Below, piece by piece: positions 1,168-16,152 of a stretch of DNA of 16,152 nt. The notes under the pieces were generated by a model. It saw nothing but the letters and a program-made list of their open reading frames with translations. It ran no database searches and was not told the DNA's origin. The position numbers and the translations under genes were made by a program. The stretch's first letter is position 1, and every line of letters begins with the position of its first letter. This stretch comes from Acidobacteriota bacterium (GTDB lineage: Bacteria > Acidobacteriota > Blastocatellia > RBC074), in NCBI GenBank assembly GCA_013140935.1, contig JABFSD010001071.1, forward strand, positions 1-16,152, in the 5' to 3' direction.

Positions 1168-1193
1168 TCAATTAATGGCTAGTGGCTGGTAGC

Positions 1194-1243
1194 TAGTGGT
1201 TAGTGGTTGATTACTAACCACTAACCACTAACCACTAACCACT
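1194..1243. repeat. Heptamer tandem repeat forming a 15-bp perfect hairpin
   Basis: Between the antiporter and yjbQ genes, ACTAACC is repeated about 4.4 times (1213-1243). It is preceded by its own inverse, GGTTAGT units. Bases 1194-1208 and 1216-1230 pair perfectly over 15 bp around a 7-base loop (GATTACT). The structure could end yjbQ transcription, but no U-rich tail is evident on the minus strand. It may instead be an interspersed repeat. Confidence 0.85.
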
Positions 1244-7173: not shown

Positions 7174-7228
7174 GCCCACGTCTTTAGGCCGCCGCGTTCG
7201 CAGCGGCCATCAATCGAGAGGTCGAGTT

Positions 7229-7819
7229 ATGGAAGAGCAAAACGGTTCCCCCGAAGGCAGAATGCGCGTATGGCGTTACATCGTCATGCTGGTCGTCGTA
7301 CCCGCACTGATTCCCATCGTTTGTCTGTTCCTGCAACAAAGCGGCTGGTCAAGCGTCAACCTCAGCATCGTGGCTTCGATCTTTGCCGGTTATTGGATTG
7401 GCGTGATGGTGGTGCTTTGGCGGGCGTTGCGCGCGCGCGGTTCGGCGAGTGCCGCGCGACTGGCTTCGCCCTTGATCGAACTCACGCTTAGTCAGGAAAT
7501 GCGCGACCGTTTGCACAACTTCGCCGACACACGCCAACAAAAACTCACTGTCGCAGCCTTTGAATTACTTGACCAACAGATTCCGCGCTTCGAACAAACC
7601 GAAGACCGCGATCGTGCGCTGCTCGACAACGAACACCTGCGCCAGCAAGCCGGGCAAGGCGTATTCCTCGTTGCCGTCACTAATGAAATCCTGCGCCGGT
7701 TGTTGTTGATCAGCGGAGCCATCGAAGAAGACCGCCAGGAATGGCGGCAACACATCAACGACACCGCCGTGCGTATAGTCAGCGACGCGCTTGATCGCGC
7801 TACCGAACAACCTTCCTGA
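7229..7819 (+). CDS. Two-helix membrane protein of unknown function
   Basis: I do not recognise this 196-residue protein. It has a short polar N-terminus, two hydrophobic helices (about 16-37 and 43-65) separated by a short turn, then a basic boundary (RALRARG) and about 130 residues of polar, helix-prone, charged sequence with a possible coiled-coil character. By the positive-inside rule the long C-terminal part should face the cytoplasm. The ATG at 7229 is supported by a GAGAGG ribosome-binding site at about 7216-7221. The longer frame from 7172 would begin inside the -10 box. It is divergent from the S9 peptidase gene with a shared promoter region. No catalytic motifs are visible. The coding character is good and ordinary for this genome. 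Confidence 0.78.
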   Translation: MEEQNGSPEGRMRVWRYIVMLVVVPALIPIVCLFLQQSGWSSVNLSIVASIFAGYWIGVMVVLWRALRARGSASAARLASPLIELTLSQEMRDRLHNFADTRQQKLTVAAFELLDQQIPRFEQTEDRDRALLDNEHLRQQAGQGVFLVAVTNEILRRLLLISGAIEEDRQEWRQHINDTAVRIVSDALDRATEQPS

Positions 7820-13477: not shown

Positions 13478-14716
13478 TTAGTTTCCGTGGCCAAAAGCAA
13501 CGGACAAATTTTGCGCCGCAAGGTCACTAACTCCAAACCTAGCAGTAATTGCGTAGCGACCATGGGGCAGCGTGTTAAGTGGTACATTCCACTGTTCCTG
13601 TCCAAGAAATACTTCTCCAATGTAAGTTGGGTTTATCGCGTATTGCACATTAGCGCCAATCTTGAAACCCACATTTTGCCCAGTAACGGGATTGTTGGTG
13701 ATCGGGCAAGCAGGTTGCGCCGGATAAAACGGAGGCGTCGTAGTATTCGCAGGAACGTTACATTGCATGTTTTCAGCGCCCGTTGTGTAAATGACTAAAA
13801 AGTTAGGCTGCCCGCCAGTAGTAACTGGGCATAAATTAGGATTACTATTGCAGGTTGAAAGTGGAGTAAGTGCCCCTGTATTCCACTTGAAATGAAACCC
13901 TGCTGGAGCCCCATATCCGCTTCCATCTTCGGTAAAGAGCCCTGGTGTCCTGAGGTTCATTCCTGTAAATATGAAGAAATTAGGAAAAGCAGGAAGAGAC
14001 GTGTTAGCCGCGTAGAAAGGGGTTCCTAGAGGAGCCATCACATTAAATGAGACGTTAGATTGGCTTGTAACTCCAGTACACTGCCCGAACTGCTCGCCCT
14101 TTGTAGCTATATTGCTCCCTGGCACATACGCGTTGATTTGATAATATCCCCCTAAGTCAAATACACCCAAAATCGCCGTATCTTTGGCGGTTGGTGACGT
14201 AGTGGTGCATGTATCAAATCGAAGTTTGAACCCATCGCTAAGGACTGTTTTCCACGGGCTAAAAGCCCCTAAATCAGTAGTCGGCTGGGGGCTGACATAG
14301 GCAGTCACGAATTGCCCATCCGTGCAGCGATTTGATTGACCGGCAGTGGAATTAAGGCAATGTAGCTGAGTTGCTGTATTGACGATTGAAGCCGATGGTG
14401 TAGGGGTAGCCATCGCCGAGGCAATCCCGCCAGACCCCCGGGCAGATTTAAGGCGGGCAGCTTCTTGCGATTCGTGAAGGCGTTGCTCAAATGCCTCATT
14501 GCGAATGGGGCGATTCAGCTTTGTAATTTCAAGAAACATCTTTTCAGTCATGCGCGGAATTTTTACATCATCTGATTGCGCCAATGCCATAATTGGCATC
14601 AGTGAAAGGGCTACGAAAAGTAACAATAACTTATTCGCGTAACATCCTCTTTTGGTTGCAAAACCGCGAACTGACAGCAGTGAAAATGCGCTGTGTTGGT
14701 AACGTGATGTGGTCAT
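13478..14716 (-). CDS. Secreted protein of unknown family, Cys-containing
   Basis: I do not recognise this 412-residue protein. A long polar/basic N-terminus (1-29) precedes a hydrophobic core (30-44) and an ALA-Q cleavage site near residue 46. This is an unusually long n-region, so either the signal peptide is extended or translation starts later. A charged helical stretch follows (about 50-95), then a Ser/Thr/Pro-rich section, then beta-rich sequence rich in Gly, Asn, Pro and aromatic residues with scattered cysteines (for example in QLHCLNS, NRCTDG, DTCTTT, GQCTG, NPNLCP, MQCNVP, PACP). The cysteines are probably disulphide-bonded. The ATG at 14716 has a strong AAGGAG site. The longer open frame to 14887 lies in the leader and lacks such a site. 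The DNA looks more AT-rich and less codon-biased than pckA or the S9 gene, which suggests recent acquisition. No enzymatic motif was seen. Confidence 0.7.
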   Translation of the reverse strand: MTTSRYQHSAFSLLSVRGFATKRGCYANKLLLLFVALSLMPIMALAQSDDVKIPRMTEKMFLEITKLNRPIRNEAFEQRLHESQEAARLKSARGSGGIASAMATPTPSASIVNTATQLHCLNSTAGQSNRCTDGQFVTAYVSPQPTTDLGAFSPWKTVLSDGFKLRFDTCTTTSPTAKDTAILGVFDLGGYYQINAYVPGSNIATKGEQFGQCTGVTSQSNVSFNVMAPLGTPFYAANTSLPAFPNFFIFTGMNLRTPGLFTEDGSGYGAPAGFHFKWNTGALTPLSTCNSNPNLCPVTTGGQPNFLVIYTTGAENMQCNVPANTTTPPFYPAQPACPITNNPVTGQNVGFKIGANVQYAINPTYIGEVFLGQEQWNVPLNTLPHGRYAITARFGVSDLAAQNLSVAFGHGN

Positions 14717-14943
14717 GGTAATTCTCCTTTTAGAATTCTTTTCGTTTGAGTTAATGCCGCAGCATTCGCGGCGGCACAGTTTGCATGAGGGAGTAGGGGG
14801 AAAAGAACCTGGGGCACCGGGAAAACCGGTAGGCGTTGCGGTGGAGAAAATCGCGCTTAATTTCAGGCAGAAGGGATGATTCCACAAAAAAGCGATCTCG
14901 CCATAACTGTTGGGTGTGACGGGCGAAACCTTAGCCGAACCAG
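14717..14943 (-). promoter_or_regulatory. Leader/promoter region of the 412-residue secreted protein
   Basis: About 227 bp precede the start codon on the minus strand. Two short hairpins are visible: GCCGC/GCGGC (14756-14772) and ACCGG/CCGGT around GAAAA (14816-14830). AGAATTCT lies next to the ribosome-binding site. I recognise no known riboswitch and cannot place a promoter with confidence. Confidence 0.35.
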
Positions 14944-15071
14944 CTAGCAGCCTGTCGGAGAAGTCGGAAAGGGCGCAATCGGTTGACGAAGAATCAACAA
15001 CTTACGAGCAGTCTTGGGTATGTGACCCCGCCTTTTCGGACAGAAAACCGGGTTCTCCGACAGGCTGCTAG
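14944..15071. mobile_element. 128-bp MITE-like element with 19-bp perfect terminal inverted repeats
   Basis: CTAGCAGCCTGTCGGAGAA (14944-14962) is exactly mirrored at 15053-15071. The outer CTAG on both sides could be a 4-bp target duplication, leaving 15-bp terminal repeats that begin CAGCCTGTC. The interior has no ORF and folds further: TCGGAAAGGGCG is roughly complementary to CGCCTTTTCGGA, and GTTGA/TCAAC forms a small central hairpin. This is the anatomy of a miniature inverted-repeat transposable element mobilised in trans by a transposase not in the window. It lies 23 bp beyond the AraC-type gene's stop codon. Confidence 0.82.
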
Positions 15072-15082
15072 GCAATGCTAGA

Positions 15083-15115
15083 GACATTTCCGGCTATCTT
15101 GCGACATTTCCGGCT
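15083..15115. repeat. 13-bp direct repeat spanning the AraC-type gene's stop
   Basis: GACATTTCCGGCT occurs at 15083-15095 and 15103-15115 with a 20-bp period, overlapping the last codons and stop of the regulator. It may mark a small duplication or insertion scar beside the MITE-like element. Confidence 0.6.
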
Positions 15116-15453
15116 GCGTTGTCGCGATACTCAGAAGGGTTGATGCCATGTTTCTTCTTGAAAGCGCGACGGAGCTTCAATTCATTCGAGAATCCGACTT
15201 TGATTGCGATCTTGCTCAGGTTCAACTCTGTCGTTTCGAGCAGTCGCCTAACGTGATGTAATCTGATTTCACAAAGATATTCCCGCAAACCCGCACCGAC
15301 TTGATCTCGGAACAAATGACGGAAGCGTTCTTCTGTAAGCTTGAAACGCTTGCCCAGTTTTTTGTATCCCCAACCCTTAGCGAATTTGTCGCGAAGCAAA
15401 GGAAGGGTCAGCCTGATGCGCCGGTCTGAAACCGTCGCTAAAAACTCTTCCAT
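15094..15453 (-). CDS. AraC-family single-domain transcriptional regulator (possibly phase-variable)
   Basis: A DNA-binding protein consisting almost only of the AraC-type double helix-turn-helix domain. The first ATG-started form has 119 residues. The first HTH is around 31-51 and the second around 79-100, with the family signature GFSNELKLRRAFKKKHG then INPSEYR (87-110). No effector-binding domain is present. The ATG at 15453 has no good ribosome-binding site. The frame stays open upstream, through protein-like codons (IDTLEQLLNAAIS) and then through a CCAAA pentanucleotide array, to a stop at 15607-15609, with no ATG, GTG or TTG in this frame. A strong GGAAGGAG site (15584-15591) followed by GTG (15578) and ATG (15571) lies on the far side of the array, but both starts are out of frame at the present repeat number. 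The true N-terminus probably depends on array length. Targets are unknown. Confidence 0.85.
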   Translation of the reverse strand: MEEFLATVSDRRIRLTLPLLRDKFAKGWGYKKLGKRFKLTEERFRHLFRDQVGAGLREYLCEIRLHHVRRLLETTELNLSKIAIKVGFSNELKLRRAFKKKHGINPSEYRDNAAGNVAR

Positions 15454-15491
15454 CGAAATCGCTGCGTTTAGTAACTGCTCAAGTGTATCAA

Positions 15492-15564
15492 TTGGTTTGG
15501 TTTGGTTTGGTTTGGTTTGGTTTGGTTTGGTTTGGTTTGGTTTGGTTTGGTTTGGTTTGGTTTG
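15492..15564. repeat. Pentanucleotide array (TTTGG)14.6
   Basis: TTGG (15492-15495), thirteen perfect TTTGG units (15496-15560) and TTTG (15561-15564): 73 bp without a single interruption. On the coding strand it reads CCAAA and encodes Pro-Asn-Gln-Thr-Lys repeats in every frame, with no stop codon. Perfect short arrays of a unit not divisible by three mutate by slippage and shift the downstream frame. Confidence 0.97.
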
Positions 15565-15568
15565 TTGA

Positions 15569-15591
15569 CATGAGACACAGTGGCTCCTTCC
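15569..15591 (-). promoter_or_regulatory. Ribosome-binding site and GTG/ATG starts upstream of the repeat array
   Basis: GGAAGGAG (15584-15591) is followed at 5 bases by GTG (top base 15578) and at 12 bases by ATG (top base 15571). At the present array length the ATG frame stops after 27 codons and the GTG frame after 36, both just past the array. A weak -10-like TATAGC (15606-15611) lies 15 bp upstream of the ribosome-binding site, with no clear -35. Confidence 0.65.
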
Positions 15592-15611
15592 GAAAATTTT
15601 GTTGAGCTATA

Positions 15612-15802
15612 GCGGTGAGAGTGAAACCAGTGCCAGGAAAATTGACCGGGGTTCTGAGGCAATTGTCTCTGCGGTTTCCCCTCATCGAACGAGTTTGGCA
15701 AAAATCTTGACCGTTGATGTTGTGGTTAAGGTTGGGGGAAACGAGAGAGCAACGAACGGGCTAGATTCTCTAACAAGGCCGAGCGCGAGGCAAGACAGCT
15801 TC
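15612..15802. other. Upstream region of the AraC-type gene, no gene seen
   Basis: I see no convincing coding sequence on either strand. Short open frames exist but lack ribosome-binding sites and protein character. The region presumably holds the promoter of the array/AraC transcript. Confidence 0.5.
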
Positions 15803-16090: not shown

Positions 16091-16152
16091 GCCTTGCCAC
16101 AACTCGGTGCGGGTGCCACGAATGCAGTACCCGCACCGAGTTGTGGCAAGGC
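16091..16152. repeat. Perfect 24-bp inverted repeat at the window edge
   Basis: Bases 16091-16114 and 16129-16152 are exact reverse complements (arms begin GCCTTGCCACAACTCGG) around a 14-base loop. The outer end coincides with the window edge, so the arms may be longer. There is no T-rich tail within view. It resembles a REP/MITE-type repeat more than a terminator. Confidence 0.9.

What the first reader, a model, noticed from the sequence alone, without database searches (positions are those of the whole stretch)
15094..15612. AraC-type regulator behind a pentanucleotide array: candidate phase-variable switch
Seen: a perfect 73-bp TTTGG array lies between a strong ribosome-binding site with GTG (15578) and ATG (15571) starts and the regulator's frame. 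ATG(15571) to the AraC frame (15453) is 118 bases and GTG(15578) is 125, so neither is in frame now. Gaining one 5-base unit would put the ATG in frame, giving about 160 residues. Losing one would put the GTG in frame, giving about 159. The internal ATG at 15453 has no good ribosome-binding site, while the codons between array and ATG (IDTLEQLLNAAIS) look like genuine protein. Known: slippage in such arrays switches genes on and off in phase-variable loci of pathogens. Inference: this is a frame switch for a transcription regulator, and so possibly a phasevarion-like regulon, in an environmental acidobacterium.
Basis: partly seen in the sequence, partly recalled or inferred. Interest (0 to 1): 0.78.

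Follow-up and report, generated by a model that had tools for sequence, protein, structure and literature searches.

The report
Repeat-tuned start of AraC-type regulator
A small gene-regulator gene in a bacterium carries a stutter-prone DNA repeat right after its start signal, so that gaining or losing one repeat unit would be expected to switch the protein on or off; its layout and its relatives support this, but no actual variation in repeat number has been seen.

Summary
A perfect 73-bp pentamer array (14.6 units, 15492-15564) separates a Shine-Dalgarno with GTG 15578 and ATG 15571 from the frame of a stand-alone AraC/XylS-type regulator. At the assembled length neither start is in frame; one unit fewer opens the GTG, one more the ATG.

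The array is an outlier: the longest perfect period-5 run is 17 bp in 405.6 kb sampled from the same genome and 16 bp in 387 kb of a congener.

Homologues support a start upstream of the array: 12 of 15 carry the segment after the array plus a leader (common form MPHENSTQTKP..LLEQ), and 0 of 14 have Met at the internal ATG. Several leaders look pentamer-derived.

Best explanation: a translational simple-repeat switch with two starts in different frames, working like Haemophilus lic2A but acting on a transcription factor, for which Campylobacter FlgR is a precedent. Switching itself is not shown: one allele only, from a fragmented draft genome, and the unit number could be an assembly product. 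'Phasevarion' is the wrong term.

Extra: a paired 18-nt direct repeat whose core occurs in this genome only at the 3' ends of this gene and its paralogue.

The parts
15571..15598 (-). Shine-Dalgarno GGAAGGAG with two starts in different frames: GTG at 15578 (5-nt spacer) and ATG at 15571 (12-nt spacer)
   Evidence: sequence; duplex energies
15492..15564 (-). perfect pentamer array, 14.6 units (AACCA on the minus strand, TTTGG on the plus), encoding NQTKP repeats in any frame
   Evidence: TRF; frame computation; background
15454..15492 (-). coding segment between array and internal ATG (IDTLEQLLNAAIS), conserved in homologues
   Evidence: alignments and sequences
15094..15492 (-). frame of the stand-alone AraC/XylS-type regulator after the array; HTH_18 domain; the frame is open up to the stop at 15607-15609 but holds no ATG, GTG or TTG upstream of 15453
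15451..15453 (-). internal ATG, start of the mechanical ORF; no Shine-Dalgarno; position is Leu or Val in homologues
15078..15115 (-). two 18-nt direct repeats (15078-15095 and 15098-15115, spacing 20) over the 3' end and stop codon; candidate operator

Best explanation
The array is a hypermutable stretch inside the 5' end of the coding sequence of a stand-alone AraC/XylS-type regulator (DNA-binding domain with a short leader, no sensor domain). Slipped-strand mispairing is expected to add or remove 5-bp units. Because 5 is not a multiple of 3, each change moves the regulator to another frame relative to the two upstream starts: one class of lengths opens the GTG (5-nt spacer to the Shine-Dalgarno), one the ATG (12-nt spacer, probably weaker), and one, the assembled length, opens neither. 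The result would be two ON levels and one OFF state, heritable and reversible, of a transcription factor and of what it controls. Shown: array, frames, conserved coding segment and upstream leader, outlier status. Inferred: slippage in the cell, expression differences, regulon.
For: Frames: of the 13 lengths from -6 to +6 units, 4 open the GTG, 4 the ATG, 5 neither. Start upstream: 12 of 15 homologues carry segment and leader; Met at the internal ATG in 0 of 14. SD pairing at the upstream starts, none at the internal ATG. The array is a clear outlier against two genome samples and resamples and unique in 162 genomes. Leaders of P0003, P0007, P0009, P0011 fit period 5 better than all of 200 shuffles and P0008 better than 199. 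Regulator frame open over 131 codons. Described mechanism: several starts in different frames before a repeat (PMC4235727, passage).
Against: No variation in unit number was observed; one allele only. The assembled allele is OFF from both starts, which also fits an assembly error or a decaying gene. Leaders of P0002 and P0010, among the relatives most like the window protein, are not pentamer-like (101 and 32 of 200 shuffles reach them). The paralogue's leader is only weakly periodic (133 of 6945 windows do as well). No held genome besides this one carries a family member at the level of the two own copies.
Confidence: 0.6

Rival explanations
1. The unit number in the assembly is wrong. In the cell the gene is in frame and constitutive, and the array is only a tolerated low-complexity leader.
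For: The genome is a draft of 1235 contigs, and a 73-bp perfect repeat is prone to length errors in short-read assembly (general knowledge). Relatives have in-frame leaders of varying length.
Against: A perfect 14.6-unit non-triplet array is expected to be unstable in itself; it is unique in the class genomes searched. A wrong count would not remove the potential to switch.
Confidence: 0.2
2. A neutral repeat expansion has knocked the gene out of frame and it is on its way to being a pseudogene.
For: The assembled allele is out of frame from both starts.
Against: No stop in 131 codons of the regulator frame; against the paralogue, differences fall 60, 42, 78 at codon positions 1, 2, 3 of 125 codons, though this cannot exclude a recent loss.
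Confidence: 0.13
3. Translation starts at the internal ATG 15453 and the array lies in the 5' untranslated region.
For: It is the only ATG, GTG or TTG in the regulator frame between the upstream stop and the domain; the mechanical ORF starts there.
Against: No Shine-Dalgarno (-0.3 kcal/mol); Leu in 13 and Val in 1 of 14 homologues at this place; it would cut off a segment that 12 of 15 homologues carry.
Confidence: 0.06

Closest known systems
Translational simple-repeat switching with several starts in different frames, lic2A of Haemophilus influenzae (review passage PMC4235727; original paper not held)
   Different: Pentamer instead of tetramer (unit recalled); the product is a transcription factor, not a surface-sugar enzyme; variation not observed here
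FlgR of Campylobacter jejuni, a phase-variable regulator of flagellar genes (PMC3928116, passages)
   Same: Slippage in a repeat would switch a transcription regulator and so its genes
   Different: Short poly-A tracts in a two-component system of a host-associated species; here a pentamer array and an AraC-type protein
AraC/XylS family (Pfam HTH_18; solved AraC DNA-binding domain 2k9s)
   Same: Two-helix-turn-helix domain; profile match E 4.2e-16 to 2k9s
   Different: No sensor or dimerisation domain; leader with repeat in its place
Phasevarion (phase-variable DNA methyltransferase)
   Same: One switch would change a set of genes
   Different: The switched product is a DNA-binding regulator, not a methyltransferase

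Membership tests
AraC/XylS family | HTH_18-type DNA-binding domain | tested here: met
   PF12833 71.9 bits, cutoff 33.6; 2k9s E 4.2e-16 with the family profile
AraC/XylS family | DNA binding and regulation | not testable with these tools
   needs EMSA or DAP-seq
Simple-repeat translational phase-variable locus | Non-triplet tandem repeat inside the 5' coding region | tested here: met
Simple-repeat translational phase-variable locus | Unit changes move the product in and out of frame of an upstream start | tested here: met
   computed for -6 to +6 units
Simple-repeat translational phase-variable locus | Unit number varies between cells or strains | not testable with these tools
   no reads; no second allele; no other genome with the gene
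Simple-repeat translational phase-variable locus | Reversible ON/OFF expression | not testable with these tools
   needs reporter fusions
Several starts in different frames (lic2A-like) | Two usable starts upstream of the repeat in different frames | tested here: inconclusive
   both starts exist with a shared Shine-Dalgarno; use of either not shown
Phasevarion | The phase-variable product is a DNA methyltransferase | tested here: not met
   the product is an HTH_18 regulator

The most novel reading that the evidence does not exclude
A small, apparently undescribed family of stand-alone AraC-type regulators has a built-in slippage tract just after its start codon, renewed more than once with different pentamers (ACTCA-like and AACCA), so that a transcription factor and its regulon switch stochastically between two expression levels and OFF in uncultured environmental bacteria; the regulator acts on the paired direct repeat at the 3' end of its own gene.
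Probability: 0.38. Interest if true: 0.7.

Novelty: new member of a known kind. Interest (0 to 1): 0.52.

Why it matters
[quoted passage not shown] A repeat-switched transcription factor of an uncultured, probably acidobacterial organism would be bet-hedging of a regulon outside the usual setting. FlgR of Campylobacter shows that regulators can be switched in this way (PMC3928116, passages), so the kind is known; the setting, the pentamer and the recurrent leader tract would be new. It can be tested by counting units in reads that already exist.

Tried and rejected
Internal-start reading: judged unlikely on SD and homologues. Array as one of many like repeats in the genome: not supported; in the sample the other perfect arrays of at least 21 bp are of period 7 or 12, and AACCA runs of four or more units occur at this place only. 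Other members in genomes: (162 class genomes, E up to 1e-15) gave domain matches in 76 genomes, best outside this genome 4.2e-26 against 1.4e-72 and 2.3e-70 for the two own copies; (396 phylum genomes, E up to 1e-30, at most 10 candidates scored per genome) gave this genome only. Of the domain matches I looked at one locus by ORF list (L044) and own-genome C486, neither with the leader; the rest, including a few that reach profile position 18, were not inspected. Genome contigs: one search gave 0 confirmed relatives, one search gave 41 loci of 21-49% identity, not inspected. Viral contigs: 1 distant match. Shared target at the two regulator loci: not supported; the downstream proteins are unrelated (best E 0.39). 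Rfam: no match in the window or the paralogue's contig. Structure prediction was asked for seven times and never ran.

Literature: ten searches listed no repeat-switched AraC regulator and no phase-variable locus of an acidobacterium; the library holds open-licence papers only. Of papers I saw passages only: PMC6479036, PMC3711429, PMC9147433, PMC4700210, PMC4235727, PMC5084427, PMC4692102, PMC13343947, PMC11475388, PMC3928116. Other titles were seen as listings.

Full report
WHAT IS THERE. On the minus strand GGAAGGAG is followed after 5 nt by GTG (15578) and after 12 nt by ATG (15571), then by a perfect array of AACCA units from 15564 to 15492 (73 bp, 14.6 units), then by the frame of a small regulator that ends at 15094. 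The regulator carries Pfam HTH_18 (E 5.3e-20), and the family profile matches the solved AraC DNA-binding domain 2k9s (E 4.2e-16). The NCBIfam AraC model aligns from its position 162 of 292 on and stays below its cut-off (71.5 against 208 bits), so this is a DNA-binding part without a sensor domain and not AraC itself. The regulator frame is open upstream through the array to a stop at 15607-15609 but holds no ATG, GTG or TTG before 15453.

FRAMES. GTG and ATG are 125 and 118 nt from the internal ATG. At the assembled length both run into stops, after 36 and 27 residues. For lengths from -6 to +6 units, -4, -1, +2 and +5 open the GTG, -5, -2, +1 and +4 the ATG, and -6, -3, 0, +3 and +6 neither. 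The unit encodes the cycle NQTKP in every frame, so only the frame after the array changes.

IS IT UNUSUAL? In 84 contigs of the same genome (422,104 bases, 16,507 of them N; window not included) the longest perfect period-5 run is 17 bp; in 387,392 bases of a genome of the same genus it is 16 bp. Leaving out six all-N contigs, the perfect arrays of at least 21 bp in that sample are six of period 7 and two of period 12; in the congener 18 of 21 are of period 7. Over-representation of heptamer repeats in many bacteria is in print (PMC4692102, passages). At least five AACCA units in a row occur in 1 of 162 genomes of the class, this one.

WHERE DOES THE PROTEIN START? The protein database holds a small family (in one search only the 8000 candidates sharing most words were scored). 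I count 15 homologues besides the window's own ORF P0001: P0002, P0003, P0005 to P0013, P0015, P0036, P0037, P0038. Dropped before the count: P0004, P0014 (distant, without the N-terminal part, but a row of alignment A2), P0016 to P0035 and P0039 onward (longer proteins or distant domain matches by the tables). Twelve of 15 (P0002, P0003, P0005 to P0011, P0013, P0015, P0036) contain the counterpart of IDTLEQLLNAAIS and a leader before it, commonly like MPHENSTQTKPAALLEQ (P0015, P0036 and P0038 placed by eye). The residue at the window's internal Met is Leu in 13 and Val in 1 of the 14 that reach it. P0012 and P0038 begin exactly at the Leu/Met of LLEQ, and P0037 further in. The window's GTG reading, (M)SHVN, lines up by eye with MPHAN of the paralogue on contig C879; the ATG reading, MSTNQTKP, resembles the starts of P0011 (VNTQTKP) and P0003 (MNTQ). 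The paralogue's Shine-Dalgarno is unremarkable (-5.2 kcal/mol; 17.6% of random 20-mers reach -5), the window's is strong (-8.6), the internal ATG has none (-0.3). A start upstream of the array is well supported; which of the two starts is used is open.

A RECURRENT TRACT? Leaders differ in length. With codons chosen to favour period 5, the window and P0003, P0007, P0009 and P0011 exceed all of 200 residue shuffles and P0008 all but one, while P0010 (32 of 200 reach it) and P0002 (101 of 200) do not. I tested 7 of the 12 homologues with a leader, picked by eye, and had only their protein sequence, so this is suggestive. The paralogue's real DNA (AACTC GATCC AACCC AAACC) is weakly periodic: 133 of 6945 windows of its contig do as well. 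P0012 and P0038 would fit out-of-frame tracts, but contig ends would explain them too.

IS THE GENE ALIVE? The frame has no stop over 131 codons. Against the paralogue, 125 codons aligned without gaps differ 60, 42 and 78 times at positions 1, 2 and 3, and 29 of 45 identical residues use different codons. That speaks for past coding constraint and cannot exclude a recent loss.

MECHANISM. The arrangement matches translational simple-repeat switching with several starts in different frames, for which a review cites lic2A of Haemophilus influenzae (PMC4235727, passage). A regulator switched by slippage has a precedent in FlgR of Campylobacter jejuni (PMC3928116, passages). Slippage, ON and OFF expression and a regulon are inferred here. 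The term phasevarion belongs to phase-variable methyltransferases (PMC9147433, passages).

LIMITS. One allele only. The genome is a fragmented draft, 1235 contigs, 73.8% complete, probably a metagenome bin; the length of a 73-bp perfect repeat may be an assembly product. No other held genome carried the gene at family level, so strains could not be compared.

AN ADDED OBSERVATION. At the 3' end of the gene lies an 18-nt direct repeat (15078-15095 and 15098-15115, spacing 20). Its core, GGAAAT(N)GTCNCNAG, occurs at exactly four places in the 6.09-Mb draft, two here and two at the 3' end of the paralogue (0 for the reversed control). A looser form (one mismatch, fixed length) gave 13 places against 6 for the control, so only the exact form is specific. 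In the window one copy lies over and after the stop codon, so coding alone does not explain its conservation. Direct repeats about two helical turns apart are typical of AraC-type operators (recalled), so this may be the regulator's own site; that is inference. Beyond it sits a 128-bp element with 24-nt inverted ends; a copy, identical over its 126 bases, ends contig C840.

Noticed in passing
window 14944-15071; contig C840 of the same genome (L181), 7209-7334: 128-bp element with 24-nt, 92% complementary inverted ends starting with CTAG, MITE-like, just downstream of the regulator; a second copy, identical over 126 bases, runs into the end of contig C840.
   Followed up: partly
window 15078-15115; L042 2424-2457: Paired direct repeat at the 3' end of both family genes and nowhere else in the draft in its exact form; candidate operator.
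   Followed up: partly
window 1176-1243: Two facing heptamer arrays (TGGCTAG and ACTAACC, 4.4 copies each) between genes; heptamers are the commonest perfect repeats in the samples of this genome and a congener.
   Followed up: partly
window 16091-16152: Perfect 24-nt inverted repeat with a 14-nt loop at the very end of the contig, perhaps a repeated element that ended the assembly.
   Followed up: no
window 13478-14887; L042 2624-5026: Each family gene is followed on the same strand by a protein that looks secreted by eye; the two proteins are unrelated (best E 0.39) and have no Pfam match above cut-off.
   Followed up: partly
   Followed up: no
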